DNA of 35,988 bases from an uncultured Anaerolineales bacterium (GTDB taxonomy: Bacteria > Chloroflexota > Anaerolineae > UBA4142): NCBI GenBank assembly GCA_903825565.1, contig CAIKBD010000136.1, positions 1-35,988 of the forward strand. Direction: 5' to 3'. The notes beneath the pieces are model-generated. The model was given only the letters and a program-made list of their open reading frames with translations, did not search any database and was not told where the DNA came from. Below are positions 15,201-35,988 of the stretch, in pieces (the stretch's first letter is position 1; each line of letters begins with the position of its first letter). The position numbers and the translations under genes are program-made.

Positions 15201-16590
15201 TTAGGTGAACTGACCTGCGGAGAGCAAGTGCGAACCGACAGCTGTCCTACGTAACGTTTTGAGCTTGTGGTAACCGTCAGCTCATCGTAGCGTTTTTGTA
15301 TCACGAAATATGTAGTTGAAAGACGCACTGTTTAATCAAATGCCCATTGTGATAAATTTTGAACCTTTGCGGATGCGTCTCGACGGTGACTTTAACATAG
15401 TGAAAGCGTAATCGGCGTCCGACTTTCACCGACTCGCCCAAGATGTCCACGTAGCCATGGGGCGGAACCCATCGAATGATCGTGAGCTTTCCAGTGGCAA
15501 CCGGAATATTCTTGAGATCGAGCGTGAAACGGGCGGGCAACTTCTGAAGGCGTTTGCTTCGACGATATTGCGTGGGTGTCCGAAACCCCAGACCTTGATG
15601 CACATGTTGGTCATTGACGGTCAGGACCAGGTGCCGCAGTTCACGGCGCACATCTGCAGCACGAGCAAAAGGTCGTTGCAACACAAGTGGTTGGAACCAG
15701 CCGTTGAAGTTTTCGACGGAGCCATTTCGTTCAGGTCTGGCTTCGGGGATGAAGACTGGTTCCACGCCCAAACGTAAGGCGAGACGAATGACGCGATTGA
15801 GCGAACGTGCATACCGCCCGGCACCATAGAATTGACGCCCATTGTCGAACTGAACCATGCGAGGTAACCCGAGACGTTGCCAAGCATGGATCAGAAAGAC
15901 CAAGACCTGTTCCAGGTCATTTCCCGCATGAAATTCGGCATAAACCGCTTGGTCGAAGGCATCCTTGCACAGGTAGAAGTAGAATTTGGTCTTGTTGCCG
16001 GTGAGATAGCGCGGACCGACCAAATCGACCTGATGCACTTGGTTGGTGTCGTGCGCTTGCGGTCCGGGGTAGCTACTGCTCGGCAACCGCCGTGCAAGTC
16101 GGAGACGTGGACTGGTCAGGTTGTGCCGTTGCAAGATACGTTCAATCGTGCGCAACGTTGGGATCGGTTTGAACTCCAATCCCACGAGTTCTTCGCGAAT
16201 CGTTGCGGCACCAATGAAAGCATACCGTGTTTGCGCGGTGGCATGCGCGTTCAGCCGACGCCGAATCGCGAGAATGGCGCGTTCGATGTGCATGGGTGTC
16301 CGATCTACGATAGTGTTGTGAGCCCGGCTCAGATCATAGAGACCTTCACCGCCGGCACTGAGATAGCGATGCCACCATTTCCGCACCCAGGATTCCGAAC
16401 GTTGTAAAGTGCGATAGATCGTGGCGATGGGTTCGCTGGCCAACCGCATTCGAATCGCGTGTTGACGATCTGAAAGTTCGTTCCGCATAGTTTCCTTTCC
16501 GTGCTGACGATTACCACGGAAGTCACTATACGCCAAGATGGTGATTGGAACGACATAAACCGCTACGATGAGCTGTCGGCTCGCACCTAA
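15201..16590 (-). mobile_element. Insertion sequence encoding an rve-type transposase (IS481-like); approximate boundaries
   Basis: Transposase ORF flanked by GTGCGAACCGACAGCT (15228-15243) and inverted AGCTGTCGGCTCGCAC (16571-16586); CAGCTCATCGTAGCG (15278-15292) inverted at 16561-16575. Confidence 0.7.
15301..16536 (-). CDS. Transposase, HTH plus integrase catalytic core (rve)
   Basis: HTH ...IATIYRTLQRSESWVRKWWHRY; DDE-type QVDLVGPRYL...VQFDNGRQF...RPERNGSVENFNGWFQ. Confidence 0.9.
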   Translation of the reverse strand: MAYSDFRGNRQHGKETMRNELSDRQHAIRMRLASEPIATIYRTLQRSESWVRKWWHRYLSAGGEGLYDLSRAHNTIVDRTPMHIERAILAIRRRLNAHATAQTRYAFIGAATIREELVGLEFKPIPTLRTIERILQRHNLTSPRLRLARRLPSSSYPGPQAHDTNQVHQVDLVGPRYLTGNKTKFYFYLCKDAFDQAVYAEFHAGNDLEQVLVFLIHAWQRLGLPRMVQFDNGRQFYGAGRYARSLNRVIRLALRLGVEPVFIPEARPERNGSVENFNGWFQPLVLQRPFARAADVRRELRHLVLTVNDQHVHQGLGFRTPTQYRRSKRLQKLPARFTLDLKNIPVATGKLTIIRWVPPHGYVDILGESVKVGRRLRFHYVKVTVETHPQRFKIYHNGHLIKQCVFQLHIS

Positions 16591-23038: not shown

Positions 23039-23041
23039 CGA

Positions 23042-23099
23042 GTAGGGGCAACCCTGTGTGGTTGCCCACCCAGGGCGAGCACATAGGCATCGCCCCTAC
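23042..23099. repeat. Intergenic palindromic element GTAGGGGC...GCCCCTAC with two internal hairpins (three-way-junction shape)
   Basis: Outer arms 23042-23049/23092-23099; inner GGCAACC..GGTTGCC and GGGCGA..TCGCCC. Confidence 0.8.
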
Positions 23100-23139
23100 G
23101 AATTCATTTCGTTCGAGTCCAAGCACGATAGGAGAAAAA

Positions 23140-24201
23140 ATGTTACTCAACAATACCTTGCAAGCCATCACCTACATTTTGTGGGCGGGCTTTGGTCTTT
23201 TGATTTTGATTTACACCGTGACGGCGGCGAATCGGCGCACCCTGGGTCTCGCCATCCCAGGTTTGATTGTGCGAGCTGGGTTTTCATCGCTCGCCGCGTT
23301 GTTGATTATCACCTACGTCAACGCGAGCGCGGCGTACATCGAGCCGCAAGAAGTAGGCGTTGTGCTCTCCACCATCGCGCCCGACGGCTATTATGACCGA
23401 CCTCTGCGTTCGGGCTTGCGGTGGGTTGTGCCGATGCTCGAACAAATCAAACGCTATCCCATTTCCTGGCAAACGTACACGATGGCGGCGAGTCCGAACG
23501 AAGGACAAAAAGTGGGCGACGATTCCATCAAGGCGCGCACCTCGGATGGACAAGAAGTCGCGCTCGATTGTTCGCTCATCTTTCAACTCGACCCCGACCA
23601 GGTGATGCGGATTCACATTGATTGGCAAGGTCGCTACATCGAAGATTTTGTGCGCCCCGTGACGCGCGGCATTGTGCGCTCGATTGTGTCCCAGTATACC
23701 GCCGACGAAGTGAACAGCGGCAAACGCACCGACCTGGAACGCGATATCAATCGGCAACTGCGCGAAACATTTCAGGACAAGGGTTTTAACGTAGACCGTT
23801 TCATTTTACGCAACGTCGCCTTTTCGTCCGAGTACGCCAACTCGATTGAAATGAAACAAGTCGCGCTCCAAGAAATTATCCAGACCGACCATCAAGCCGA
23901 CCAAGCGCGTCGCCGCGCGCAAGGCGAGGCGGATGCCGTGCTCATCAAAGCCAAAGCTGACGCTGAAGCGATTCGGTTGACGGCAGATGCGCTCAAGCAA
24001 AACAAGGATGTGCTGACGTACGAGTACATCAACAAACTGTCGCCGAATGTGCGCGTGATGCTCGTGCCGAACAATGCGCCGTACATCTTGCCCTTGAACG
24101 ATTTGAATCCTGGCGACCTGGGCACGCCGACACCCAGTCCCAGCATCACGCGCACGCCGACCATCACCGCCACGCGCACCATCACGCCGACGGGACGCTA
24201 G
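23140..24201 (+). CDS. SPFH/Band 7 (prohibitin-like) membrane protein
   Basis: N-terminal TMs, EPQEVGVV, RSGLRWVVPMLEQIKRYPISWQTYTM, long A/E/R helix QADQARRRAQGEADAVLIKAKADAEAIRL; RBS GGAG 9 nt upstream of ATG. Confidence 0.93.
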   Translation: MLLNNTLQAITYILWAGFGLLILIYTVTAANRRTLGLAIPGLIVRAGFSSLAALLIITYVNASAAYIEPQEVGVVLSTIAPDGYYDRPLRSGLRWVVPMLEQIKRYPISWQTYTMAASPNEGQKVGDDSIKARTSDGQEVALDCSLIFQLDPDQVMRIHIDWQGRYIEDFVRPVTRGIVRSIVSQYTADEVNSGKRTDLERDINRQLRETFQDKGFNVDRFILRNVAFSSEYANSIEMKQVALQEIIQTDHQADQARRRAQGEADAVLIKAKADAEAIRLTADALKQNKDVLTYEYINKLSPNVRVMLVPNNAPYILPLNDLNPGDLGTPTPSPSITRTPTITATRTITPTGR

Positions 24202-24212
24202 GACAAGTAAAA

Positions 24213-25220
24213 ATGCAAAAGCTAAAAGATGCAAGTGTTTGCCCAACTCAACGCCGACGCGCGTCACACTATCTCACTTTATATTTTTTACTTTTTACTT
24301 TTTACTTGACCACCGCTTGCGCGGCGTTTGGCGACACGTGTCCAGCCAATTGCGCGCACCTGAATTTGACGAATAAAAATTTTGCGGGCGCGAACCTGGC
24401 GCGTGCGCAATTTATGGAAGCCAATTTGCGCCAAGCGCGTTTTGCCAATGCCGATTTGAGCGGCGCGGATTTTTCGGGCGCGAAATTAATTCAAGCCGAT
24501 TTGCGGAACACGAATTTGCAAAACGCGCGCTTGATTGGCGCCGACCTCACGCAAGCCAACCTGGGTGAAGCGAACCTGGAATACGCCAACCTGGGAAGCG
24601 CGAATCTCAAAAGCGCGAACCTGGTGCGCGCCGATTTGCGCGGCATCCAAGCCACCTACCTCGATTTGACGGACGCGCAGTTGAACGGCGCGAATCTCAG
24701 CGGAATGGATTTGGCGGCGTGTGTTTTTCAAGGCACCAAATTGTCCACCGCCAATTTGAGCGGCAGTAATTTGGCGGGCAGTTCGCTCAGCCGCGCCGAC
24801 CTGAGCGGCGCACTGTTGATTCGCGCAACCTTCGCGGGCGCGTGGCTCAACCTGGCAAACCTGACGAGCGCGAATGGGCATAACGCGGTGATGAATGGCG
24901 CGAGTTTGTACGGCGCGAACCTGGCGGGCGCGGATTTGAGCGCGACCCAGTTACGCGGCGCAATGCTGGTCGGCGCGCAACTGAATGGCGCCGATTTGCG
25001 CGATGCGGATTTGCGCGGCGCGGTGCTGAATTATGACCCCGCCAATTTCAACCTGGGCGATGCCGTCCAAGACCCCGTTGTGATGGAATTGAATCAAGCG
25101 GCGCGGCAATCGTTGAATCGAAATGCGGATTTGCGCGGCGCGCGTTACAACCGCGCGACGCAATGGCCCCAGGGTTATCGCGTGCCGAACGAAGCGACCC
25201 TGGTGGAAGATACGCCCTGA
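24213..25220 (+). CDS. Pentapeptide-repeat lipoprotein 1
   Basis: FLLFTFYLTTACA lipobox-like start; A(D/N)LxxAxLxxA repeats throughout. Confidence 0.9.
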   Translation: MQKLKDASVCPTQRRRASHYLTLYFLLFTFYLTTACAAFGDTCPANCAHLNLTNKNFAGANLARAQFMEANLRQARFANADLSGADFSGAKLIQADLRNTNLQNARLIGADLTQANLGEANLEYANLGSANLKSANLVRADLRGIQATYLDLTDAQLNGANLSGMDLAACVFQGTKLSTANLSGSNLAGSSLSRADLSGALLIRATFAGAWLNLANLTSANGHNAVMNGASLYGANLAGADLSATQLRGAMLVGAQLNGADLRDADLRGAVLNYDPANFNLGDAVQDPVVMELNQAARQSLNRNADLRGARYNRATQWPQGYRVPNEATLVEDTP

Positions 25221-25225
25221 AAAAA

Positions 25226-26437
25226 ATGATGCAAAAATTCCTAGTATTGTTTATCGGTTTGATGCTCACTGCTTGCGCGACAAATTTGGCGGCGACGCCC
25301 GAACAATGCGTGGCGCGCATTGGCATTATCAATTCGCTCAGCGGCGTGTTTGCCGAGAGCGGGCGTGATTTGCAACGCGGTTACGAAATGGCGCGCGACG
25401 AAATCAATGCGCGCAATGAATTGGCGGGCTGTGTCTTGCAACTCGACACGCGCGACGACCATTCAGACCCAGCGCAAGCCAGGGACGCGACGCGACAACT
25501 CGCGCGCGAACCCGTCGTGGCGATGATTGGCGCAGTGAACAGCGACCTGACGATTGCCGTCGCCGCGCTCACCGACGAAAATCACGTGCCGCTCATCGTG
25601 CCCACCGCATCGAGCGATGTGTTGACCGCCGCGTTTGAATCCACCGTGCGCGTTGCCGCATCGCAACCGCAACTCGTCGGCACCCAGTTCGAGTTCTTGG
25701 AAAATCTGCGCGTCGCGGGCACGCCCATCAAATCGGTGGGATTGTTGTACGAAGCATCCGAATCGGGACGCGGAATTTTTGTCGCCGTCAAACGCGCGGC
25801 GCAAGACCACGCCATCGCGCTCATCGCCGCCGAAAGTTATGCGCAAGGCGCGACGGATTGGCGCGCCGCCCTGGGTCGCATTCAACACGCCAAGCCCGAC
25901 GTGCTTTATCTCGACACGAATCGTTTGAGCAACCCAGGATTGTTGGTGCGCCAAGTGCGCGACCTGGGTCTGAAGCCGAGCATAATCATCGTGAGCACGT
26001 TGAGCGATGCGTTGCTGGCGGAGGCGCGCGCGGAAAATTTGGTGACGAGTGTGCAATGGCTGGCGACCCTGGATTGGCGTGATGAAAACGGCGTGACGAC
26101 GGCGGCGTGGGCGCGCGAGTTTGAGCAACGGTATCACGCGCCCGCCAATTTCAAAAACATCGCGGGGTATATGGCGGTGCAGTTGCTCGCGCGCGCGCTC
26201 AAGACCCAGCCACTCTCGAAGGCGGCGTTGGCAAATCCCAGTTCGCTTCGTTCGCCCTTGTTGCGCGCATTGTATCAAGTGCGCGCGGACAAGACCGTGT
26301 TCGGTCCCATTCGCTTGGACAACCTGGGACAAAATCAACATCCTGTTTTAATCGCCCAAGTCATTGACGGCAAACTGACCATCGTCTATCCAGAGTTGTA
26401 TCGCGCGCGTCCGTTGGTCGTGCCCGCAGAAGAGTAG
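25226..26437 (+). CDS. Type-1 periplasmic-binding lipoprotein (branched-chain amino-acid binding-like)
   Basis: MMQKFLVLFIGLMLTACA lipobox; ARIGIINSLSGVFAESGRDLQRGYEMARDEINAR...VVAMIGAVNSDLTIAVAALTDENHVPLIVPTAS; ATG at 25226 preferred to upstream track start. Confidence 0.88.
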   Translation: MMQKFLVLFIGLMLTACATNLAATPEQCVARIGIINSLSGVFAESGRDLQRGYEMARDEINARNELAGCVLQLDTRDDHSDPAQARDATRQLAREPVVAMIGAVNSDLTIAVAALTDENHVPLIVPTASSDVLTAAFESTVRVAASQPQLVGTQFEFLENLRVAGTPIKSVGLLYEASESGRGIFVAVKRAAQDHAIALIAAESYAQGATDWRAALGRIQHAKPDVLYLDTNRLSNPGLLVRQVRDLGLKPSIIIVSTLSDALLAEARAENLVTSVQWLATLDWRDENGVTTAAWAREFEQRYHAPANFKNIAGYMAVQLLARALKTQPLSKAALANPSSLRSPLLRALYQVRADKTVFGPIRLDNLGQNQHPVLIAQVIDGKLTIVYPELYRARPLVVPAEE

Positions 26438-27574
26438 ATGGCAATGTCACACCAAAAATTATTTTTTCTCGTTTTGCTTTTGAGCGCAGTTGCGTCAAGC
26501 GTATCCAGTTGTTCGATGGTCGGCACGGTCATCACGCTGAACGATTGTCCGCCGCAATGCGCGGGCGTCACAATGTCGCATAAAAATTTCAATCGCGCCG
26601 ATTTGCACAGCCAATCGTTGAGCCGCTCGATTTTTCGCCAGGGCACATTTCGCCAAGCCAATCTCAGCGACGCCGATTTGTCGGGCGCGGATTTGAGCGG
26701 GAGCGATTTGACGGGCGCGAATTTGCGCGGCGCGAATTTTGCGGGCGCAACGCTCAAAGATGTTGTGCTCAGCAATGCCGATTTGACCGATGCGAACTTG
26801 AGCGGCGCAAATCTGACGGGCGCGTTTTTGACGAGCGCGAATCTCACGCGCACCAAACTGACCGCGACCATTTTTAATGAGGCGCATCTCGTCGGCGCAG
26901 ATTTAACGGGCGTCCGCTTGGCGGGCAATCAAATGTTCGAGGCGGATTTGCGCGGCGCGCAATTATTGGACGCCGACCTGAGCGGCGCGAACCTGACCCA
27001 GGCACAATTGTCCTCCGCCGATTTGCGCCAAGCGAACCTGGGAGGCGCGACCTTGTATCGCGCGCAACTGTACGGCGCGAACTTGAACAGCGCGCATCTC
27101 AGCGGCGCGGATTTGTCGGGCGCGGGAATGGATGGCACGGATTTGCGGAACGCGGATTTGCGCGGCGCGGTGTTGCAAGGCGCGGGGCTGACAGGATGCA
27201 ACCTCGATGGCGCAAACCTGTCACGCGCGCATTTGCCTGGCGCATTTCTCGCGGGCGCGGTGTTGACGGGCGCTGACCTCACCGACGCCGAATTTGTCGA
27301 GGTCGTCCAAGTGAGCGGGCAAGAATATCTGCACGCGGCAACCTTGTATGGCACAACCCTGGCACAAACGGATTTGAGTCGCGCCGATTTAGCGGGCGCA
27401 TCATTAAACGGCGTGGATTTGCGCGGCGCGAATTTACGCACCGCCGTGTTGACGAAAACGCTCACGCTCAACGGCGTGCCCGTTTTGGAAACCGTGATTC
27501 TGAATGGCGTGCGTTGGGATGACACGACGCAATTCCCAAATGGCTTTAACCTGGCATCGTTACAGGGGAGGTGA
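26438..27574 (+). CDS. Pentapeptide-repeat lipoprotein 2
   Basis: FFLVLLLSAVASSVSSCS lipobox; NDCPPQCAG...KNF then ADLSGADLSGSDL repeats; paralogous to 24213-25220. Confidence 0.92.
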   Translation: MAMSHQKLFFLVLLLSAVASSVSSCSMVGTVITLNDCPPQCAGVTMSHKNFNRADLHSQSLSRSIFRQGTFRQANLSDADLSGADLSGSDLTGANLRGANFAGATLKDVVLSNADLTDANLSGANLTGAFLTSANLTRTKLTATIFNEAHLVGADLTGVRLAGNQMFEADLRGAQLLDADLSGANLTQAQLSSADLRQANLGGATLYRAQLYGANLNSAHLSGADLSGAGMDGTDLRNADLRGAVLQGAGLTGCNLDGANLSRAHLPGAFLAGAVLTGADLTDAEFVEVVQVSGQEYLHAATLYGTTLAQTDLSRADLAGASLNGVDLRGANLRTAVLTKTLTLNGVPVLETVILNGVRWDDTTQFPNGFNLASLQGR

Positions 27575-27637
27575 ATCGAAATTAAAATTCGTGACTCGAA
27601 CGGCGACTGAATCAAAATAAATTTACCAGGAGAAAAA

Positions 27638-27886
27638 ATGGAACATTCAAAAACAAACCCAGGATTGCGCGTGCGCGCGAATGTGCGCGCGGGCGGCGTG
27701 ACGATTTACGGCTCGGACAATTGCGGCTGGACGACCAAGCAAAAGGAGGCGTTCGACGCCAAGGGGATTCCGTACACCTACGTCAACTGCGACAAGGAAA
27801 CTTGCCCCACCATCGTCAAGGCGTTTCCGACGGTTACGGGCTATCCCGATGAAACGGACAACTGGACGGGTTTTCAAAAAATCTAA
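27638..27886 (+). CDS. Leader-family small protein 1: leader LRVRANVRAG + degenerate glutaredoxin-like domain
   Basis: LRVRANVRAG then GVTIYGSDNCGWTTKQKEAFDAKGIPYTYVNCDKE...FPTVTGYP; RBS CAGGAG. Confidence 0.85.
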   Translation: MEHSKTNPGLRVRANVRAGGVTIYGSDNCGWTTKQKEAFDAKGIPYTYVNCDKETCPTIVKAFPTVTGYPDETDNWTGFQKI

Positions 27887-27933
27887 GCGCGCACAAGTTC
27901 AACGCGCAAATTCAAACATCCAAGGAGGATTGT

Positions 27934-28695
27934 ATGTGGTGGTTGATTTTCGGTTTACTGATTGTGATTGGCGTGTGGCTGTACTTCAAGCCCGCGTGGG
28001 CGCCGCAACCGACCCAGGTACAAGGCGAGCTGGCTAAAAGCGTGCGACTCGTCGGCGACCGCGCGGGCACGATGTACGCGGGGCTGGGCGGCTGGCTCAA
28101 ATTGCGCCGCGACAAATCGCAACTCGTGACGCAGTTTCAAACCTGGGCGGCAACCGATACGCTCAATCAAGCGGCGGCGAATGCGGAACTGGCGGGAACG
28201 GCGGCAGAACTCAAGACCTGGCTCGCCACGTTGTCGGACAAGGAATTGAAAATGTTTTGCGACAAGGTCGCGCATTTCACTGCCGCGCTGGGTTTCGACC
28301 TGGCTTGGTTGTGGGACGACCAACTGCGCGGACAAGCCGAACTGAAACGCGCGCTTGAAGAAGCGGTGGCGTTGTACTGCATCACCGTTTGGCGCGCGCA
28401 ACGCGTGCAAGATGAAGTGCGCGCATTCGTCGCCTGGGACCGTTGGCAGGCGCATCCCAACAAGCATCGCGCGTTGGGACAAAAAATGTACACCGCGCTC
28501 GTGCAGAACGGGATGATTATGATGGACGTGGAAATGTACACCGCGTCGGACAAGGCGCGCTGGGCGCAGATGAACCGCTCAATCAAAGAAGTGGCGCGCG
28601 CCAATCCCGAAGCGGTGAGCGCGATTGTGCGCGGGATGGTGTTCGCGCATCCGCAACCGCCCGCCGCGCCGAGTGATACGTCGGCGCAGGCGTAA
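27934..28695 (+). CDS. Membrane-anchored protein of unknown function
   Basis: N-terminal TM WWLIFGLLIVIGVWLYF then helical soluble domain; RBS AAGGAGG. Confidence 0.8.
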   Translation: MWWLIFGLLIVIGVWLYFKPAWAPQPTQVQGELAKSVRLVGDRAGTMYAGLGGWLKLRRDKSQLVTQFQTWAATDTLNQAAANAELAGTAAELKTWLATLSDKELKMFCDKVAHFTAALGFDLAWLWDDQLRGQAELKRALEEAVALYCITVWRAQRVQDEVRAFVAWDRWQAHPNKHRALGQKMYTALVQNGMIMMDVEMYTASDKARWAQMNRSIKEVARANPEAVSAIVRGMVFAHPQPPAAPSDTSAQA

Positions 28696-28714
28696 TGGAA
28701 AGCGAGCGCCGAAA

Positions 28715-28897
28715 ATGAAAACCAGGAAATTTTGGCGAACGTCGCGGCGCGTGATTGCGCGGATGTGTGCGCGCGCTGGCTTGAGTGTGCGCGCGCACAT
28801 CCGAATCGGCAAATCGCAAACGGAATGCACGAAATGTCAGAGGGGTTTCCAGACCTGCTTTTTGCCAATGGGCGATCTTTTTGTAGCAATGTGCTAA
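28715..28897 (+). CDS. Leader-family small protein 2 (divergent, N-terminally extended): LSVRAHIRIG + TECTKCQRGFQTCF
   Basis: MKTRKFWRTSRRVIARMCARAGLSVRAHIRIGKSQTECTKCQRGFQTCFLPMGDLFVAMC*; motif in frame, weak RBS. Confidence 0.5.
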   Translation: MKTRKFWRTSRRVIARMCARAGLSVRAHIRIGKSQTECTKCQRGFQTCFLPMGDLFVAMC

Positions 28898-28927
28898 TCG
28901 CTCGTGGGATACGATGGAGCATAAAAA

Positions 28928-29155
28928 ATGAAACGTCAACCAACTAGACCATCCAATCGCGCTGGAATTGCCGTGCGAACCCAGGTGCGCGCGGGCGAAC
29001 GCCTCGACCTGAGCAACGCGCAACCCGAAATCAATTTGTTTGACCGCACGATGTTTGTAGTTTTGGACGCGCTCCAAAAACCGACGAACGCGGTGTACGA
29101 CTGGGTGTGCGCGCCCAATCGAAAGGAGTCCAATGAAAATTCGTTCGGGCGTTAA
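28928..29155 (+). CDS. Leader-family small protein 3: IAVRTQVRAG + unknown core
   Basis: MKRQPTRPSNRAGIAVRTQVRAGERLDLSNAQPEINLFDRTMFVV... Confidence 0.7.
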   Translation: MKRQPTRPSNRAGIAVRTQVRAGERLDLSNAQPEINLFDRTMFVVLDALQKPTNAVYDWVCAPNRKESNENSFGR

Positions 29156-29306
29156 GGTGGGACAAGGGCTGGGTGATTGGGTGGCAAAGGTGTGTCAAGT
29201 GACGGGCGTGACCGCAAGCGCGCAAAAGTACACCCAGGTCACGGGCAAAGCGTGCGGGTGCGAAAAACGCCAAGCGATTCTCAATCGCCTCGCGCCGTCT
29301 GCCTAG
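29133..29306 (+). CDS. Leader-family small protein 4: MKIRSGVKVG + 47-aa core
   Basis: MKIRSGVKVGQGLGDWVAKVCQVTGVTASAQKYTQVTGKACGCEKRQAILNRLAPSA*; GAAAGGAGT RBS; below the track length cutoff. Confidence 0.7.
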   Translation: MKIRSGVKVGQGLGDWVAKVCQVTGVTASAQKYTQVTGKACGCEKRQAILNRLAPSA

Positions 29307-29315
29307 ATGAACCCA

Positions 29316-29363
29316 AGTGCCGCGCGCTAATCAATCCGCGTCATGCCGATGGCGCGCGGCACT
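29316..29363 (+). repeat. Intergenic hairpin AGTGCCGCGCGC ... GCGCGCGGCACT (perfect 12-bp stem)
   Basis: Arms 29316-29327 and 29352-29363. Confidence 0.8.
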
Positions 29364-29393
29364 CGTTCCGAATCCAACCAGGAGAATTGAAAA

Positions 29394-29585
29394 ATGAAAT
29401 AGCAAAAAACAGAACGGCAACTGCGTGTGCGAACGCAGGTCAATGCGGGAGGGATAGGATTGGACTACTGCGAGCAGTTCGTCGGAAAATCCAAGTGTTA
29501 TTGTGAATGGCTTATCCGAGACAACCAAGCAGGAGTGAACAAGAGCACTAATCAATCGGAATACGACAAATGTTTGAAGAGTTAG
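29394..29585 (+). pseudogene. Leader-family member with in-frame amber at codon 3: MK*QKTERQLRVRTQVNAG + GIGLDYCEQFVGKSKCYCEWLIRDNQ...YDKCLKS
   Basis: Codon-by-codon alignment with 31746 (ATG AAA AAG CAA... vs ATG AAA TAG CAA...) and intact downstream frame. Confidence 0.65.
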
Positions 29586-29609
29586 AGACTTTGTAAAGGA
29601 GCAACGCAA

Positions 29610-29837
29610 ATGAAAAAACAATTACAGGTACGAACGCGCGTGCAAGCCGGCTGGGAAGACAAGATCAAGGGTTGCAGTTTCTGGGAAACCACCGGCGATG
29701 ATGGCGTGACGCGCCTCAAAGGTCAATGCCTTGATCTGCAAGGGCGCGTGAAAGAGACCGCCATCGCATTTCCGACCAGTTATGCCGGGATTGTTCTGAA
29801 TTGCGACGGACAACTGACCCTGGGCGGATGCGGTTAA
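29610..29837 (+). CDS. Leader-family small protein 5: LQVRTRVQAG + CVNH (cyanovirin-N homology)-like domain
   Basis: KGCSFWETTGDDGVTRLKGQCLDLQGRVKETAIAFPTSYAGIVLNCDGQLTLGG matches the CVNH pattern C..L.G.C....G......I.......I.NCDG.L. Confidence 0.75.
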   Translation: MKKQLQVRTRVQAGWEDKIKGCSFWETTGDDGVTRLKGQCLDLQGRVKETAIAFPTSYAGIVLNCDGQLTLGGCG

Positions 29838-29912
29838 ATCCCGGGCGCGCCAATTCTAAAACCAGGAGATGCCATGACCTAAACTCATTTTACATTCAAC
29901 GCATTTACATCC

Positions 29913-29934
29913 GCGCGCATCGTGGGATGCGCGC
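29913..29934 (+). repeat. Hairpin GCGCGCATC-GTGG-GATGCGCGC
   Basis: Perfect 9-bp stem, 4-nt loop. Confidence 0.85.
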
Positions 29935-29969
29935 AAAAACCAATTCACAACCAAAAGGAGAAACTGAAC

Positions 29970-30161
29970 ATGCGAATTCGAACCAACCTCAAAGCGGGCA
30001 TCCGTGGCACGTATGTGGTGCAAGCCGGCGACACACTGGTCTCCATCAGCAAAAAATATTACAAGGGCAATGCCAAACGCTGGAAAGACATTTGTAACAC
30101 CAATCGCCTCGTCGATTGCAACAAGATCAAACCCGGTCAATCGCTCGTGATTCCCGACTAG
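29970..30161 (+). CDS. Leader-family small protein 6: MRIRTNLKAG + LysM domain
   Basis: TYVVQAGDTLVSISKKYYKGNAKRWKDICNTNRLVDCNKIKPGQSLVIPD*. Confidence 0.9.
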   Translation: MRIRTNLKAGIRGTYVVQAGDTLVSISKKYYKGNAKRWKDICNTNRLVDCNKIKPGQSLVIPD

Positions 30162-30178
30162 GTGAAATGCGATGTGGC

Positions 30179-30208
30179 GATGCGGCGTCTGACGCTGGGC
30201 GCGGCATC
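30179..30208 (+). repeat. Intergenic hairpin GATGCGGCGT...GCGCGGCATC (10-bp stem, one mismatch)
   Basis: Homologous to 30475-30504. Confidence 0.65.
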
Positions 30209-30236
30209 CCATCGAACAAAACCCAGGAGCAATGAA

Positions 30237-30457
30237 ATGAAAAAGCAAACGACGAAAAAACAAATCCGCGTGCGCGCACAAATCCGCGCGGGATTCCCAT
30301 CACCATCAAAGGGACCATTCAAGCTGCCGTTTCCCTGAGCAAAATCAGTACCAAGTTTTACGGGACGCCGAACAAGTGGATGAAATTGTGCACGGCGAAT
30401 AACCTGCCGGATTGCAACAAGATCTATGCTGGCAAATCGCTCGTGATTCCCGACTAG
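30237..30457 (+). pseudogene. Leader-family LysM paralogue disrupted by a frameshift just after the leader
   Basis: Frame 0: MKKQTTKKQIRVRAQIRAGFPSPSKGPFKLPFP*; shifted frame: IPITIKGTIQAAVSLSKISTKFYGTPNKWMKLCTANNLPDCNKIYAGKSLVIPD*. Confidence 0.8.
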
Positions 30458-30474
30458 TTGAAATGCGGTGTGGA

Positions 30475-30504
30475 GATGCCGCGTCCGACGCTGGGCGCGG
30501 CATC
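30475..30504 (+). repeat. Intergenic hairpin GATGCCGCGT...GCGCGGCATC (10-bp stem, one G-U)
   Basis: Arms 30475-30484/30495-30504. Confidence 0.8.
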
Positions 30505-30532
30505 CCATCGAACAAAACCAAGGAGCAATGAA

Positions 30533-30697
30533 ATGAAAAAGTCAACGATGAAAAAACAAATCCGCGTGCAGACCCAGGTGCGCGCAGGACTCGAAAACAC
30601 CTGTGAGCGGTGCAAACAGATGTGTCCGTCCAATCATGGGATACGCGCGATGTGCATCGAGCGGTGTAAGCAATTGTATTGCCAGGACGCTGGATAA
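30533..30697 (+). CDS. Leader-family Cys-rich small protein 8
   Basis: MKKSTMKKQIRVQTQVRAGLENTCERCKQMCPSNHGIRAMCIERCKQLYCQDAG*; AAGGAG RBS. Confidence 0.8.
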   Translation: MKKSTMKKQIRVQTQVRAGLENTCERCKQMCPSNHGIRAMCIERCKQLYCQDAG

Positions 30698-30732
30698 TGC
30701 GCGGTGCACAATCAAAACAAGGAGCAATAAAA

Positions 30733-30879
30733 ATGAAAAAACCAACGACGAAAAAACAAATTCGCGTGCGCGCGCAAATCCGCGCGGGCAAGTGGCAGTT
30801 CTGCAAAGCGCTCAAATGCAACACCGTAGAAAAGGGCGGCGCGCCGAACACGTGCCAAGCGGTCGAGTGCGTCAACTAG
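30733..30879 (+). CDS. Leader-family Cys-rich small protein 9
   Basis: MKKPTTKKQIRVRAQIRAGKWQFCKALKCNTVEKGGAPNTCQAVECVN*; AAGGAG RBS. Confidence 0.8.
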   Translation: MKKPTTKKQIRVRAQIRAGKWQFCKALKCNTVEKGGAPNTCQAVECVN

Positions 30880-30885
30880 TCGAAC

Positions 30886-30926
30886 GTGCCGCGTGTTTTA
30901 TGCAGATGTTGTGAAACGCGCGGCGC
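30886..30926 (+). repeat. Intergenic hairpin GTGCCGCGTGTTTT ... GAAACGCGCGGCGC (14-bp stem with G-U pairs)
   Basis: Arms 30886-30899/30913-30926. Confidence 0.8.
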
Positions 30927-30955
30927 AGATTCAAAAAAATCAAGGAGATGAAACA

Positions 30956-31120
30956 ATGGAAGACAAAATCAAAATCGAAATGACCCCAACGAAAGAAACG
31001 CCGGAGCGTCCTGTTGAAACGAGTGCGCCGCGCGCTGGGTTGCGCGTCCGCGCACAGGTGCATGTGGGTCATGGAGAAGATGCGTCCGATTGGCGCAACA
31101 AAGTTTGGCTTTGGCGTTGA
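30956..31120 (+). CDS. Leader-family small protein 10: LRVRAQVHVG + short core
   Basis: MEDKIKIEMTPTKETPERPVETSAPRAGLRVRAQVHVGHGEDASDWRNKVWLWR*. Confidence 0.7.
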   Translation: MEDKIKIEMTPTKETPERPVETSAPRAGLRVRAQVHVGHGEDASDWRNKVWLWR

Positions 31121-31170
31121 GTGGAACCCGAAGACGAAAACGTAATGGCGTTGTACCCCCACTAGGCGTG

Positions 31171-31227
31171 CGGCGCGCCGAACACGTGCCAAGCGGTTGA
31201 GTGCGTCAACTAATCGGACGCGCCGCG
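31171..31227 (+). repeat. Leaderless duplicate of the 3' end of the 30733 gene plus following hairpin arm (…GAPNTCQAVECVN*)
   Basis: Nearly identical to 30837-30893 at a constant 334-bp offset. Confidence 0.85.
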
Positions 31228-31259
31228 CATCGCACCGGAGAAAATGCGATGCGCGGCGC
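31220..31259 (+). repeat. Intergenic hairpin GCGCCGCGCATCGCA-CCGGAGAAAA-TGCGATGCGCGGCGC (perfect 15-bp stem)
   Basis: Arms 31220-31234/31245-31259. Confidence 0.9.
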
Positions 31260-31287
31260 AGATTCAAAAAAAATCAGGAGATGAAAA

Positions 31288-31665
31288 ATGGAAAAAGCGA
31301 GTTTCTGGCGACGGTTGTTCGCCTATTGTCTGGACAATATCATCATCGGCGTGGTCTGGGGCGGCTTGACCATGTTCCTGGAAATGGACCCGCTCGTTGA
31401 AAATCTCATCGTGCTGATCATCACGGCGGTGTACTTTATCGTCTTTTGGGCAACCAACGGACAACCGCTGGGTCATCGCGCGCTGGGCATCAAGGTCGTG
31501 ATGTTGGATGGTTCCCCACTAACGTATGGCAAAGCGATTTTGCGTTTCATCGGCTATTGCCTGTGCGATGCGTTGCTCGGCATCGGCTATCTGTGGGTGA
31601 TTTTCGACAAGAACAAACAGGGCTGGCACGACAAGATTGCCGGCACGATTGTCGTCAAAGCGTAA
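31288..31665 (+). CDS. RDD family membrane protein
   Basis: FWRRLFAYCLDNIIIG...GQPLGHRALGIKVVMLDGSPLTYGKAILRFIGY...DKNKQGWHDKIAGTIVVKA. Confidence 0.92.
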   Translation: MEKASFWRRLFAYCLDNIIIGVVWGGLTMFLEMDPLVENLIVLIITAVYFIVFWATNGQPLGHRALGIKVVMLDGSPLTYGKAILRFIGYCLCDALLGIGYLWVIFDKNKQGWHDKIAGTIVVKA

Positions 31666-31676
31666 CCCGTTCATGT

Positions 31677-31715
31677 TGCCGCGCGTCTCGCGTAGACGCC
31701 CGCGAGCGCGCGGCA
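31677..31715 (+). repeat. Intergenic long hairpin TGCCGCGCG-t-CTCGCG ... CGCGAG-CGCGCGGCA (9+6 bp)
   Basis: Arms 31677-31692/31701-31715 with one bulged T. Confidence 0.85.
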
Positions 31716-31745
31716 CAATTTCAAAAATAACAAAGAGAAGTGAAA

Positions 31746-31907
31746 ATGAAAAAGCAAACGATGAAAAAACAATTGCGTGTGCAAACCCAGGTGCGCGCCG
31801 GTGCAGACCGATGCGAAATTTGTAAACTGAGTTGCCTGTTCGAGCCGAGGGATGAAAACCGCGAGCGTTGCAACAACAGTTGTAATCAAACGGCATGTCG
31901 CAAATAA
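31746..31907 (+). CDS. Leader-family Cys-rich small protein 11
   Basis: MKKQTMKKQLRVQTQVRAGADRCEICKLSCLFEPRDENRERCNNSCNQTACRK*. Confidence 0.8.
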   Translation: MKKQTMKKQLRVQTQVRAGADRCEICKLSCLFEPRDENRERCNNSCNQTACRK

Positions 31908-31970
31908 CAAGCTCCGCCTGTTTTTAGGGTGTGGCAAGAAAAGCCGAAAGCAAAATAAAGAGTAGCCCAA

Positions 31971-32114
31971 ATGAAAACACCAACCGCCAAAAAACAATTA
32001 CGTGTGCAAACCCAGATACGCGCAGGTGTGACACGCGCCGAATGCATTAAAAAATGTCCACGACACGAAGCCACTCTATTCAAAGCGTGCCAAGCCAAGT
32101 GTCCGAGCGTGTAA
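31971..32114 (+). CDS. Leader-family twin-CxxxC small protein 12
   Basis: MKTPTAKKQLRVQTQIRAGVTRAECIKKCPRHEATLFKACQAKCPSV*. Confidence 0.8.
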   Translation: MKTPTAKKQLRVQTQIRAGVTRAECIKKCPRHEATLFKACQAKCPSV

Positions 32115-32152
32115 AAAAATTGTGCTTGAACTTTCAAAATCCAGGGTAAAAA

Positions 32153-35086
32153 ATGAAACCGTCTCTAATCCTGTGGCTGGGCATACTGATATTGCTGTCT
32201 GCACTGTTAATGCTCGGCGTTGACACCACGTTGGCGCAAACCTCGAATGAAGCGATGCTGTGCTTTCTCCGCAACGGCGAGGTCGCGTGCATCCATCGCC
32301 CACTAAATGTTTCCGGCAATCTATCCACCCGCCTGCAAACGACCTTGCAAGCGTTGGTCGCTGGTCCCACGCCAACGGAACGCGCCGCCGGTTTGTCGTC
32401 GGCGATTCCGGCGGGCGCGACGCTCGCCCAGGTCAACGTCGGCGGCGTCGGCGTCAACGTCATGCTGGTCCTGCCCGAAACATTTTTGCGCCAGACGCTC
32501 AATGCGTCCATCTCCGATCAGCTCGTCGCGCAAATCGTTCAGACGGTTTATCCGTTTCGCGCCGAGTTGCGAACGGCGGCGGGCATTCGCGCAGGCGCGG
32601 TGAATGATCGGCTCATCGTTCACGTGCTCGTCCAAGACCCCTGGGATGCCGCGCATCCATTCCGCGACCTGGCTTTATATTTGAACGAAAATCCAATCGT
32701 GCGTAAAGGGAGCGTGGCGATACCCAGGTCGCCGGCTCGCGCAACCTCGTCGCTCGCCGGCAAAGCGATCTATCTCAGCGCGGGGCACGGCTATTACTGG
32801 CATGCGGGTTATGCCAAGTGGCTCACGCAACGACCGGTCTGGGACGACCTGGTGGAAGATTTCAATAATGCCGAAGTGGTCAACCAATATCTCATTCCGT
32901 ACCTCCGCAATGCCGGCGCAGATGTGTTCACCGTCCGCGAACGCGACATGAACACGACTGAAATCACGGCAACACTCACCTCGCCCGGTTATGCGGAAAC
33001 CGGAACCTGGGTGAATGGAACCGATCCCATTACCAAATCAACCTTGCTCTTTCCCTGGCATTACGCCAGCACGAATGCAACCGCAACCGCCACGGCGACC
33101 TGGATAATTACGCCCACGCAAACCGCGCGCTATACACTTTATGCCTGGTACGTGGATGGCGCGAATCGCGCGCCCGACGCGCGCTATCGCATCGAATCGG
33201 CGAGCGGCGTGGTTGACTTGCAGGTAGACCAAACGGTTCACGGCATGACCTGGCGTCCGATTGGCGTGGTGGCGTTGTATGCCAATCAGCCCGTCCGCAT
33301 CACGCTGTCGAATGTTTCGGCGGTGGCGGGGCGCGTGGTCACGGCAGGCGCGGTCCGCATCGGCGGCGGCATGGGCAGTATCCTGGGAAGCACGAGTCCG
33401 ACGACGAGTGGGCGTCCGCGTTATGAAGAAGCGTCGCGGTACTGGGCACAGTTCCAAGGTGCGCCCACCTCGGTTTATCATCCTGGGGCGGCGAGCGATG
33501 TGACGGACGATGTGGGCACGCGCCCGCGCTATGCCGAGTGGGAACATCCGGCGGGCGAAGATGCCTTGTTCCTTTCCTGGCACACGAACGGATCGAGCAA
33601 TCACAATTCGCAAGGCACGGAATCGTACATTTACGACGGCACGCTGGGCGGCATGTGGTCGCCCGGTTCAGATTACTTGCAATACTATTTGCACACGTCG
33701 CTGGTCAATAGCATTCGGAGCGCCTGGGATCCATCCTGGGTTGATCGCGGCATGTTAGCCGCCAACTTTGGCGAAGTGCGTCCGCTCAGCACCATGCCCG
33801 GCGTGTTGATGGAAATTGCGTACCACGATAATCGCGCTGAAGCGAACGCGCTGGTTGATCCGCGCTTTGCCCAAATCACGGCGCGCGCGATGTATCAGGG
33901 CATCGTGCGTTATTTCGCCGGCCGCGATCAAACGACGCCGATCTTTTTACCCGAACCGCCCGCCGGGTTTGCCGTGCGTACTAGCGTCCCAGGTCAGGCG
34001 ACCTTGACCTGGGATGCATCGCCGACCGACGGCGATGGTCCGCTCGGCGATGCCGCTACGAGTTATCGCGTGTACACCAGCCCCGATGGTTTTGCGTGGG
34101 ATGCGGGCGTGAGTGTAGCCACCCAGGTTTACACCGTGACCGGATTGACCGCCGGTCAAATAATTTTTGCGCGCGTCACCGGCGTCAATGCCGGCGGCGA
34201 ATCCCTGCCCTCGTACACGTTGGCGGCGCGCGTCCCGACATCGGGCAATCCAGCCATTTTGTTGGTCGAAGGATACACGCGCAATGATCGCAGTAACGCC
34301 ACTTGGCAAAACGATGGCATTAGCGTCGGCGACACGATCACGACCGGACCCAGCTTGCGACTGTACGCGGATCGCACCAATCGGCAAGATTATGCGATTC
34401 AACATGGCTTGGCGATTACGCGCGCGTTCGACAGTGCGACGCGCAATATGGTGAGCAATGGCAGTGTGAGTTTGAATCGTTACGCGGTGGTGGCGTGGAT
34501 GGCGGGCGAAGAGAGTTCCTCGTCCGAGTCTATTCCGATTGGCGCGGGACCGCTGGCGTTGACCGACGTGGAGCAATCCTTGCTTGCCAATTTTGTGGCG
34601 CGCGGCGGGTCGCTCTTGATGAGTGGTTCGGAAATTGGGCGCGACCTGGTGATGCAAAACCAGGGCGCGGCGTTTTATCGTGACACGCTCAAGGCATTTT
34701 ATCAGGGGAGTGATGCGATGAAACTCAATCCGCCCGATCCCTATCCCAACAAATTGTATCCAGTGCCCGGTGGAATTTTCGCGGGCATGGGCATATTCTA
34801 TTTTGATAATGGGACGCACGAAATCTACAACGCCGACCGCGTAGATTATTTTCTGCCCCTGCCCGAGGACCGTCGTGCGCGTTCGGCGTTGACGTATCAA
34901 GCCGCGATTGGTAGCGCCGCGTTGACCTGGAATTCGGGCGTGTGCGCGCGCGTGGTCTACCTGGCTTTTCCCATCGAGACGATTTATCCAGCCGAGACGC
35001 GCGCCGAGGTCATGCGCCGCGCGCTCGATTTTCTGTCGCCGTGCCAGCAATCCTGGGTCGAGTACTTGCCGTTGATTCGGCGATAG
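32153..35086 (+). CDS. Secreted N-acetylmuramoyl-L-alanine amidase (GerMN-like, Amidase_3, inserted golvesin-like domain, FN3)
   Basis: Signal peptide; GKAIYLSAGHGYYWHAGY...LFLSWHTNGSSNHNSQGTESYIYDG...GVLMEIAYHDNRAEANAL; FN3 APPAGFAVRTSVPGQATLTWDASP-like. Confidence 0.85.
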   Translation: MKPSLILWLGILILLSALLMLGVDTTLAQTSNEAMLCFLRNGEVACIHRPLNVSGNLSTRLQTTLQALVAGPTPTERAAGLSSAIPAGATLAQVNVGGVGVNVMLVLPETFLRQTLNASISDQLVAQIVQTVYPFRAELRTAAGIRAGAVNDRLIVHVLVQDPWDAAHPFRDLALYLNENPIVRKGSVAIPRSPARATSSLAGKAIYLSAGHGYYWHAGYAKWLTQRPVWDDLVEDFNNAEVVNQYLIPYLRNAGADVFTVRERDMNTTEITATLTSPGYAETGTWVNGTDPITKSTLLFPWHYASTNATATATATWIITPTQTARYTLYAWYVDGANRAPDARYRIESASGVVDLQVDQTVHGMTWRPIGVVALYANQPVRITLSNVSAVAGRVVTAGAVRIGGGMGSILGSTSPTTSGRPRYEEASRYWAQFQGAPTSVYHPGAASDVTDDVGTRPRYAEWEHPAGEDALFLSWHTNGSSNHNSQGTESYIYDGTLGGMWSPGSDYLQYYLHTSLVNSIRSAWDPSWVDRGMLAANFGEVRPLSTMPGVLMEIAYHDNRAEANALVDPRFAQITARAMYQGIVRYFAGRDQTTPIFLPEPPAGFAVRTSVPGQATLTWDASPTDGDGPLGDAATSYRVYTSPDGFAWDAGVSVATQVYTVTGLTAGQIIFARVTGVNAGGESLPSYTLAARVPTSGNPAILLVEGYTRNDRSNATWQNDGISVGDTITTGPSLRLYADRTNRQDYAIQHGLAITRAFDSATRNMVSNGSVSLNRYAVVAWMAGEESSSSESIPIGAGPLALTDVEQSLLANFVARGGSLLMSGSEIGRDLVMQNQGAAFYRDTLKAFYQGSDAMKLNPPDPYPNKLYPVPGGIFAGMGIFYFDNGTHEIYNADRVDYFLPLPEDRRARSALTYQAAIGSAALTWNSGVCARVVYLAFPIETIYPAETRAEVMRRALDFLSPCQQSWVEYLPLIRR

Positions 35087-35113
35087 ATATTTTCAAAACA
35101 AGGAGAAGCGAAA

Positions 35114-35296
35114 ATGAAAAAACAATTGCGTGTGCGAAGCCAGGTGCGCGCGGGATTCCGCAATAGCAACGGCGAGACCAATGCGAAAACACAACAGGCG
35201 ATCAAACTAGGAGCGTGTCAATCAGCGTGCCAAAACAGGGGTTTCGTCCGGAACTCGGACGCATGGAACACGTGTGTGAACACGTGTGTCGGATAA
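35114..35296 (+). CDS. Leader-family twin-CxxxC small protein 13
   Basis: MKKQLRVRSQVRAGFRNSNGETNAKTQQAIKLGACQSACQNRGFVRNSDAWNTCVNTCVG*. Confidence 0.85.
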   Translation: MKKQLRVRSQVRAGFRNSNGETNAKTQQAIKLGACQSACQNRGFVRNSDAWNTCVNTCVG

Positions 35297-35304
35297 TCGG
35301 ACGA

Positions 35305-35340
35305 GCCGCGCATCGCATCGGAGACGATGTGGTGTGCGGT
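35305..35340 (+). repeat. Intergenic hairpin GCCGCGCATCGCA-TCGGAGACGA-TGTGGTGTGCGGT (13 bp including four G-U)
   Basis: Homologue of 31220-31259 with all changes pairing-compatible. Confidence 0.8.
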
Positions 35341-35371
35341 GCATATTCAAACAAATCAAGGAGATGAAACA

Positions 35372-35545
35372 ATGAAAAAGCCAATGACGAAAAAACAACT
35401 GCGGGTGCGCGTGAACGTGCGCGCGGGTTTTTCGGTTGAAGAGTGCAAGGGTAAATGCTATGCAAAACATACCTCAGTGCATTCGCCGTATGATTTGCAT
35501 GACTGTCTAGAGCAATGCGAATGGGGGCTTGACCCCAACAAATAA
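35372..35545 (+). CDS. Leader-family twin-CxxxC small protein 14
   Basis: MKKPMTKKQLRVRVNVRAGFSVEECKGKCYAKHTSVHSPYDLHDCLEQCEWGLDPNK*. Confidence 0.85.
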   Translation: MKKPMTKKQLRVRVNVRAGFSVEECKGKCYAKHTSVHSPYDLHDCLEQCEWGLDPNK

Positions 35546-35613
35546 CAAGGGCGGTTCGTAGGACGAGTGCACGGATCAAGCCCTAGAAACTTTACCAACA
35601 GGAGGTAAATCCA

Positions 35614-35913
35614 ATGTCACAAAATTGTTCAAAGCTCAAACTGCGTTCGAGTGTTCGGGTTGGGGCGGTTGTGCTCTATGGCAAAACCGGCGACCAAAAC
35701 ACTGACCTGGCGTTGCGCGCGCTCGATCATCTCGGCGTGCAATACGGTTTTTCGGAATGCAACAATCCGCAAGGTTGTCTGACGCCAAACGGCATGGTGA
35801 CCGAAACACCCACCTTGACCGGCTTGCCTAAACCCAGTGACCGCTGGGAGGGACCAGGCGTGTTTGAAGGATTGGTGCGCGGATTTCTCATGATTCCGAC
35901 GAACGGTCGCTAA
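35614..35913 (+). CDS. Leader-family small protein 15: LKLRSSVRVG + glutaredoxin/thioredoxin-like domain lacking CxxC
   Basis: LKLRSSVRVGAVVLYGKTGDQNTDLALRALDHLGVQYGFSECNNPQG...TETPTLTGLP; RBS AGGAGG. Confidence 0.8.
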   Translation: MSQNCSKLKLRSSVRVGAVVLYGKTGDQNTDLALRALDHLGVQYGFSECNNPQGCLTPNGMVTETPTLTGLPKPSDRWEGPGVFEGLVRGFLMIPTNGR

Positions 35914-35940
35914 TCGTTTGCGCGGGATGGTCATGCCGAT

Positions 35941-35971
35941 GAGCGGCGCGAGAAATTGCATCGCGCCGCTC
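35941..35971 (+). repeat. Intergenic hairpin GAGCGGCGCGA-GAAATTGCA-TCGCGCCGCTC (perfect 11-bp stem)
   Basis: Follows last leader-family ORF, near window end. Confidence 0.85.
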
Positions 35972-35988
35972 AAAGCGCGTCCGCAAAA

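What the first reader, a model, noticed from the sequence alone, without database searches (positions are those of the whole stretch)
27638..35913. Array of 16 small genes with one shared N-terminal leader and unrelated downstream domains
Sixteen co-directional small ORFs carry the same motif near the N-terminus, often preceded by MKKxxxKKQ. The motif copies are: LRVRANVRAG, LSVRAHIRIG, IAVRTQVRAG, MKIRSGVKVG, LRVRTQVNAG, LQVRTRVQAG, MRIRTNLKAG, IRVRAQIRAG (two copies), IRVQTQVRAG, LRVRAQVHVG, LRVQTQVRAG, LRVQTQIRAG, LRVRSQVRAG, LRVRVNVRAG, LKLRSSVRVG. After the invariant Gly the sequences are unrelated: glutaredoxin-like (2), CVNH-like (1), LysM (2), Cys-rich/twin CxxxC (at least 5), others. 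Leader codons vary synonymously (TTG/CTG/TTA; CGT/CGC/CGG; GCC/GCG/GCA), which points to protein-level conservation rather than a simple recent DNA repeat. The arrangement resembles RiPP families with one leader and diverse cores, but several cores are whole folded domains and no modifying enzyme is visible. My favoured inference is a shared export/processing signal for a set of small secreted or surface effectors. Most members are too short for ordinary gene callers.
Basis: partly seen in the sequence, partly recalled or inferred. Interest (0 to 1): 0.95.

Follow-up and report, generated by a model that had tools for sequence, protein, structure and literature searches.

The report
Secretion-tagged cysteine miniprotein array
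A bacterium, probably a Chloroflexota, carries over 40 small genes that share a ten-residue N-terminal tag followed by ever-changing, mostly disulfide-type miniproteins; relatives show that the tag goes with one family of cut-and-export pumps, so this looks like a new kind of secretion tag with a large secreted repertoire behind it.

Summary
All 16 motif copies are present, on one strand (0 in 60 shuffles). The array continues on contigs C474 and C446, about 44 members in all. C446 ends in an ABC exporter with an intact C39 (leader-cutting) peptidase domain. Conservation stops abruptly at the Gly (3.85 bits, then 0.3). Leader codons are under purifying selection (pN/pS 0.52 against 1.01 in cores). 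Of 35 cores with two or more Cys, 33 have an even number, and 13 have twin CX3C (0.6 expected), which points to secreted disulfide miniproteins. Orthologues of the exporter (41-58% identity) occur in about 18 genomes of the class and two others of the phylum. The motif (MKVKTNVKAG, LKVRTDIRAG, VAVRTDLRAG) sits next to many of them: 13 hits in 292 kb against 0 in 716 kb of control loci. Two relatives carry LanM lanthipeptide synthetases whose apparent precursors end their leaders in the same motif or a close variant. Best reading: an atypical, non-GG leader that is recognised, cut after Gly and exported by this transporter family. Unexplained: in one relative the motif also heads three heavy-metal P-type ATPases, and here an ABC transporter. 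What the cargo does is inferred only.

The parts
27638..27886 (+). member 1: leader LRVRANVRAG + glutaredoxin-like core
28763..28897 (+). member 2 (doubtful start, no Shine-Dalgarno): LSVRAHIRIG + 4-Cys core
28928..29155 (+). member 3: IAVRTQVRAG + core without Cys pair
29133..29306 (+). member 4: MKIRSGVKVG + GLGD...CGCEKR...LN core; 38% identical over its length to a leader ORF of genome G009 (BLASTP E 3e-16)
29394..29585 (+). member 5: in-frame TAG at codon 3 (MK*QKTERQ-LRVRTQVNAG), 4-Cys core; possibly a pseudogene
29610..29837 (+). member 6: LQVRTRVQAG + 61-aa core predicted to be beta-rich, 4 Cys
29970..30161 (+). member 7: MRIRTNLKAG + LysM domain (Pfam 1.3e-11)
30237..30338 (+). member 8: IRVRAQIRAG, LysM core lost by frameshift after the leader
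30533..30697 (+). member 9: IRVQTQVRAG + 6-Cys core (C2C3C9C3C4C)
30733..30879 (+). member 10: IRVRAQIRAG + 4-Cys core
30956..31120 (+). member 11: LRVRAQVHVG with longer N-terminus, 16-aa core
31746..31907 (+). member 12: LRVQTQVRAG + 6-Cys core (C2C3C11C3C4C)
31971..32114 (+). member 13: LRVQTQIRAG + twin CX3C core
35114..35296 (+). member 14: LRVRSQVRAG + twin CX3C core
35372..35545 (+). member 15: LRVRVNVRAG + twin CX3C core
35614..35913 (+). member 16: LKLRSSVRVG + 82-aa core, glutaredoxin-like claim unconfirmed
20906..23038 (+). ABC transporter without a Pfam C39 match (ABC2 of the conserved cassette; TIGR03797-like, below cut-off)
22990..24201 (+). SPFH/Band 7-family protein of the conserved cassette, by homology to L205 and other loci; start not settled
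24213..25220 (+). pentapeptide-repeat protein with lipoprotein-like N-terminus (cassette)
25163..26437 (+). periplasmic-binding-protein-like protein with lipoprotein-like N-terminus (cassette; named from its sequence)
26438..27574 (+). second pentapeptide-repeat protein (cassette)
27934..28695 (+). 253-aa protein with one N-terminal hydrophobic (TM-like) segment; a cassette family found in 10 of the loci compared
35862..35988 (.). 127-bp end overlap (99.2%) with contig C474, where the array continues

Best explanation
The shared N-terminal motif [LIM]-x-[VI]-[RKQ]-[TSA]-x-[VIL]-[RKQ]-[AVTS]-G is the recognition and cleavage signal of a dedicated C39-peptidase ABC exporter (the PCAT type; its gene is at the end of the same array on contig C446, with a short HlyD-like helper). 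The exporter's cytosolic peptidase domain binds the basic, alternating leader, cuts after the Gly, and the transporter passes the core out of the cell. In this genome the signal heads at least 40 different cores. Most are small cysteine-rich proteins that probably oxidise outside the cell into disulfide-stapled miniproteins, often twin-CX3C helical hairpins; a few are small domains (LysM, glutaredoxin-like). The hypervariable cores behind a fixed leader are most simply read as a diversified extracellular repertoire for antagonism or signalling. Supported by computation: leader/core boundary, motif-exporter pairing, disulfide type. Not shown: cleavage, export, cargo activity.
For: Information content is 3.85 bits at Gly and 0.3 at the next residue over 44 members. 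Leader pN/pS 0.52 (0.46-0.58), core 1.01. A C39 exporter with the Cys-His-Asp residues in place is on contig C446 of the same array. Loci of 18 exporter orthologues from other genomes: 13 motif hits in 292 kb, 12 at the N-terminus of an ORF; 0 in 716 kb of distant ABC loci; 0 in shuffles; the pattern came from this genome only. Forward test in genomes outside the class: VAVRTDLRAG ORF directly upstream of the helper and exporter (L221), MEVRTDLKAG in G405. Lanthipeptide-type precursors beside LanM in two genomes end their leaders in MLLQSSLRVG, MQFKSGLLAG and MDVRSGLVAG. Three exporter paralogues that have lost the catalytic Cys and His have no motif ORF nearby. Even Cys number in 33 of 35 cores, p 1.8e-8; twin CX3C in 13 against 0.6 expected.
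Against: The motif lacks the PCAT consensus L(-12), E(-8), L(-7), G(-2). It also heads three heavy-metal P-type ATPases in G150, an ABC transporter and, weakly, an acyltransferase on C474, which cannot be exported cargo. Several orthologous exporters with an intact peptidase have no detected motif ORF nearby (L156, L159, L162, L166, L169, L172, L174). The exporter gene and the window are on different contigs. Two of the three lanthipeptide-type precursors match the motif only loosely. A second, separate C39 exporter exists in the genome (C69).
Confidence: 0.76

Rival explanations
1. The motif is a docking or sorting tag, not mainly an export signal: it brings soluble miniproteins and some membrane enzymes (P-type ATPases, ABC transporter, acyltransferase) to one membrane platform made by the SPFH, pentapeptide-repeat and ABC proteins of the conserved cassette.
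For: The tag is kept (MKVRTHIKAG, MRVRTHIKAG, MKVRTHVKAG) on three diverged P-type ATPases in G150 and on an ABC transporter here. SPFH, pentapeptide and 253-aa proteins are conserved neighbours.
Against: Most members have disulfide-type cores, which fits export. LanM-associated precursors carry the motif just before their Cys/Ser/Thr-rich cores, where leader cleavage would be expected. Conservation stops at the Gly.
Confidence: 0.12
2. The array is a RiPP family: the leader serves a modifying enzyme and the cores are modified peptides, for example lanthipeptides or other Cys-linked products.
For: One leader and many cores; LanM next to the same cassette in G221 and next to the exporter in G405.
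Against: No LanM in this genome; no modifying enzyme among the larger ORFs examined in the three contigs. Even Cys numbers suggest disulfides. Several cores are whole domains. In the LanM loci the motif is only the last ten residues of a longer leader.
Confidence: 0.08
3. The repeated motif is a recent DNA-level repeat or degenerate remnant spread by local duplication, with little protein function.
For: Some neighbouring members are recent DNA duplicates (window 30114-30296 and 30410-30592, 87%), and two or three are broken.
Against: Synonymous variation is high while the protein is kept (pN/pS 0.52). Homologous motifs lie next to orthologous exporters in distant genomes.
Confidence: 0.03

Closest known systems
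Double-glycine leader peptides and PCAT exporters (PCAT1/CtA, ComA, LahT)
   Same: N-terminal leader, conservation ending at the cut site with Gly at -1 and a hydrophobic residue at -4; C39 peptidase ABC exporter, whose C39 domain matches PCAT1 at E 4e-12
   Different: No L(-12), E(-8), L(-7) or G(-2); the leader is basic with alternating hydrophobic residues, which suggests a strand rather than the helix seen in PCAT1-CtA (PMC6959990)
NHLP/Nif11 precursor families and their three-gene ABC/HlyD export system (PMC2887384)
   Same: Family-wide leader, hypervariable Cys-rich core, two ABC proteins plus a HlyD-like protein, LanM in some clusters
   Different: The precursors do not match the family models and lack the acidic GG logo; the exporter scores 207 bits against a TIGR03796 cut-off of 853
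Prochlorosins (one leader, many cores)
   Same: Many hypervariable cores behind one leader type in a genome
   Different: No lanthionine synthetase here; disulfide-type cores; short leader (comparison from the literature and memory)
Conotoxin-type gene families and alpha-hairpinins
   Same: Fixed secretion sequence, hypervariable mature part with fixed cysteine frameworks; twin CX3C as in alpha-hairpinins (from memory, a lead only)
   Different: Bacterial, different secretion route; toxicity and fold unknown

Membership tests
PCAT substrate with classical double-glycine leader | conserved leader ending at a Gly, hypervariable cargo after it | tested here: met
PCAT substrate with classical double-glycine leader | consensus L(-12) E(-8) L(-7) G(-2) G(-1) | tested here: not met
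   only G(-1) and a hydrophobic -4 agree; -2 is Ala/Val, -7 Arg, -8 Val
PCAT substrate with classical double-glycine leader | cognate C39-ABC exporter in the same locus | tested here: met
   contig C446, intact Cys/His/Asp; linkage to the window contig is by the shared array, with an end overlap shown only for C136-C474
PCAT substrate with classical double-glycine leader | cleavage after the Gly and export | not testable with these tools
   needs biochemistry
NHLP / Nif11 precursors (TIGR03793, TIGR03798) | match to the NCBIfam leader models | tested here: not met
   no match for the array members scanned
NHLM-type exporter (TIGR03796) | score above the curated cut-off | tested here: not met
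   207 bits against 853
Class II lanthipeptides | LanM synthetase in the genome or cluster | tested here: not met
   none in this genome; present in relatives G221 and G405
Disulfide-rich secreted miniproteins (twin CX3C, alpha-hairpinin-like) | paired cysteines in repeated frameworks | tested here: met
   33 of 35 even; twin CX3C 13 against 0.6 expected
Disulfide-rich secreted miniproteins (twin CX3C, alpha-hairpinin-like) | disulfide connectivity and helical hairpin fold | not tested
   no structure made for these cores
Bacteriocins/microcins | antimicrobial activity and immunity | not testable with these tools
   needs assays; no immunity gene identified

The most novel reading that the evidence does not exclude
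The ten-residue motif is a general address tag of a conserved membrane platform (C39-ABC exporter, second ABC, short HlyD, SPFH protein, pentapeptide-repeat proteins, 253-aa anchor): soluble tagged proteins are cut and exported, while tagged membrane proteins such as heavy-metal P-type ATPases are docked to, or activated by, the same peptidase. That would be a bacterial sorting system with one tag and two fates.
Probability: 0.13. Interest if true: 0.9.

Novelty: new variant of a known kind. Interest (0 to 1): 0.74.

Why it matters
It would define a new leader class for peptidase-containing ABC exporters, easy to search for, in Chloroflexota-type bacteria whose secreted peptides are little known. 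It points to a large set of short, hypervariable secreted miniproteins likely to be missed by ordinary gene callers, and to linked lanthipeptide clusters in relatives. The motif on metal-pumping ATPases raises a testable question about a tag that is not only for export.

Tried and rejected
Leader HMM built from this genome alone (A1) found no clustered hits in 59 relatives and only two single, chance-like hits in 396 class genomes; the link to other genomes came only through the exporter orthologues and a broader motif. The related-loci scan with the exporter gave no homologue above 34% and no motif. The 20906 ABC protein as sole exporter: rejected, no C39 match. Sec signal: the leader has no hydrophobic stretch (read from the sequence). 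CVNH for 29610: no family, sequence or significant fold match. Second glutaredoxin (35614): not confirmed. LanM in this genome: none. Literature search for the motif strings: nothing. The later leader HMM A2 and its co-occurrence figure (p 5.6e-7) are partly circular, because A2 includes motifs from those genomes, so I do not rest the case on them. The large exporter and ABC2 search outputs contain generic ABC matches, which were ignored.

Full report
Observation. The window is contig C136 of a 6.37 Mb, 530-contig genome. A strict pattern finds exactly the 16 motif copies listed, all on the + strand, and none in 60 dinucleotide-preserving shuffles. The same motif is found on two further contigs, C474 and C446, 14 copies each. 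A profile of the leader finds its significant hits in the genome only on these three contigs. The end of the window overlaps the end of C474 over 127 bases at 99.2%, so these two are probably neighbours; C446 is placed with them only by the shared array and paralogous genes.

Anatomy. Over 44 members the conservation profile rises through the ten positions to 3.85 bits at the Gly and falls to 0.3 bits at the next residue; the residues before the motif are often MKKxxxKKQ. 36 of 44 have a Shine-Dalgarno sequence. Pooled pN/pS is 0.52 in the leader (bootstrap 0.46-0.58) and 1.01 in the first ten core codons. The core value is near saturation and says only that cores are unrelated. The cores hold 6.3% Cys. 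Of 35 small cores with at least two Cys, 33 have an even number (p 1.8e-8), mostly 4 or 6; the framework CX3C-Xn-CX3C occurs in 13, against 0.6 in shuffled cores. A few pairs are recent duplicates, so the members are not all independent.

Exporter. C446 ends in an 897-aa ABC protein with a Peptidase_C39 domain (Pfam 8.9e-20) that matches PCAT1 (E 3.7e-12) and keeps the catalytic residues. A 152-aa HlyD-like protein lies in the same array (HlyD-like from its sequence and position; no convincing family match). The window's 20906 protein is an ABC protein without a C39 match.

Other genomes. Full-length orthologues of the exporter, 41-58% identical, occur in about 18 of 298 sampled genomes of the class and in two genomes outside it. 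Around 18 orthologue loci, the motif pattern defined on this genome has 13 hits in 292 kb, 12 at the N-terminus of an ORF; 43 loci of distant ABC transporters, 716 kb, have none, and shuffles have none. The controls differ in G+C (40 against 54%) and taxonomy; the shuffles correct for composition. The hits include tandem MKVKTNVKAG-SVNWG ORFs beside the helper and exporter (G224, G251), IAVKTNVRAG with a 4-Cys core (G008) and LKVRTDIRAG (G114). Two loci fetched afterwards served as a forward test: G630 has VAVRTDLRAG right upstream of helper and exporter, and G405 has MEVRTDLKAG near the exporter.

Lanthipeptide link. G221 has the same cassette (ABC2, SPFH, pentapeptides, 253-aa protein, helper) next to a LanM (E 1.6e-253), with two precursors whose leaders end MLLQSSLRVG and MQFKSGLLAG before Cys/Ser/Thr-rich cores. 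G405 has LanM (E 2.4e-268) and a precursor ending MDVRSGLVAG. The first fits the motif fully, the other two loosely. Both genomes also have a leader-only ORF of the NHLP kind (TIGR03793 in G221, 7.2e-19; G405 by eye). That the motif stands where leader cleavage is expected is the strongest argument that it is the cutting and export signal.

What does not fit. In G150 the motif heads three heavy-metal P-type ATPases (TIGR01525); in this genome it heads an ABC transporter (E 0.007) and perhaps an acyltransferase (E 1.3) on C474. These are not exportable. Either their tags are cut without export or the tag also docks proteins to the exporter. I keep this as the novel case. Several orthologous exporters with an intact peptidase have no detected motif ORF nearby (L156, L159, L162, L166, L169, L172, L174), and three peptidase-dead paralogues have none either; with these numbers the contrast is suggestive only.

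Comparison with the known. The known PCAT consensus is L(-12)xxxE(-8)L(-7)xxxxG(-2)G(-1) with a helix at -10 to -4 (PMC6959990). Here only Gly -1 and a hydrophobic -4 agree; the rest is basic and alternating. The members scanned do not match NHLP or Nif11 models and the exporter is far below the NHLM cut-off, so I do not file it as a member of those families; it works like them. No held paper contains the motif strings. I therefore call it a new variant of a known kind.

Function of the cargo. Nothing here tests activity. Hypervariable, disulfide-type cores with fixed frameworks, next to secreted wall- and protein-degrading enzymes (amidase 32153-35086; metalloprotease on C474), suggest extracellular antagonism or signalling; the SVNWG cores beside large regulators in G224 and G251 suggest signalling in those genomes. 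I give antagonism about 45%, signalling 20%, other roles (metal or wall binding, redox) the rest.

Noticed in passing
window 29133-29306; L208 933-1106: The GLGD...CGCxxR...LN core has relatives among small hypothetical proteins of phages (MW202828.1 E 4e-5; Microcystis phage Mel-JY01 E 0.03), so a phage-type module seems to have been joined to the leader.
   Followed up: partly
L164 3605-3851, L165 5689-5718: MKVKTNVKAG-SVNWG mini-ORFs (three tandem copies in G224) next to helper, exporter and a large AfsR/SARP-like TPR regulator: candidate pentapeptide pheromone.
   Followed up: partly
L160 6494-9223, L173 8455-11250 (own contig C57), L170 2579-5434: Exporter paralogues whose C39 domain has lost the catalytic Cys and His (CG to GG or NG, HF to RF), beside SPFH/pentapeptide genes in two cases.
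   Followed up: partly
L205 9402-11675 and 16942-19194, L161 2269-4263 (G150): Three heavy-metal P-type ATPases start with the motif (MKVRTHVKAGEF, MRVRTHIKAGEF, MKVRTHIKAGEF).
   Followed up: partly
L209 4150-4356, L220 7670-7870: NHLP leader-only ORFs without a core in both LanM-bearing relatives, in L220 directly next to the exporter.
   Followed up: partly
window 20906-28695: Conserved cassette (ABC2, SPFH, two pentapeptide-repeat lipoprotein-like proteins, binding-protein-like protein, 253-aa TM-like protein), in whole or part in L160, L162, L173, L175, L205, L208 and L209; its role is unknown.
   Followed up: partly
window 30237-30458 and 29394-29585: Two array members look broken: a LysM member frameshifted after its leader and a member with an in-frame TAG at codon 3.
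   Followed up: no
L210 3867 and 10182, L212 1982 (G089, G020): Repeated LKVQTGVRAGDSGAGCCAP-like frames next to long ORFs, probably a separate repeat and not part of this system.
   Followed up: no
window 508-1401 and 15301-16536: ORFs that read like IS transposases or integrases, by sequence only.
   Followed up: no
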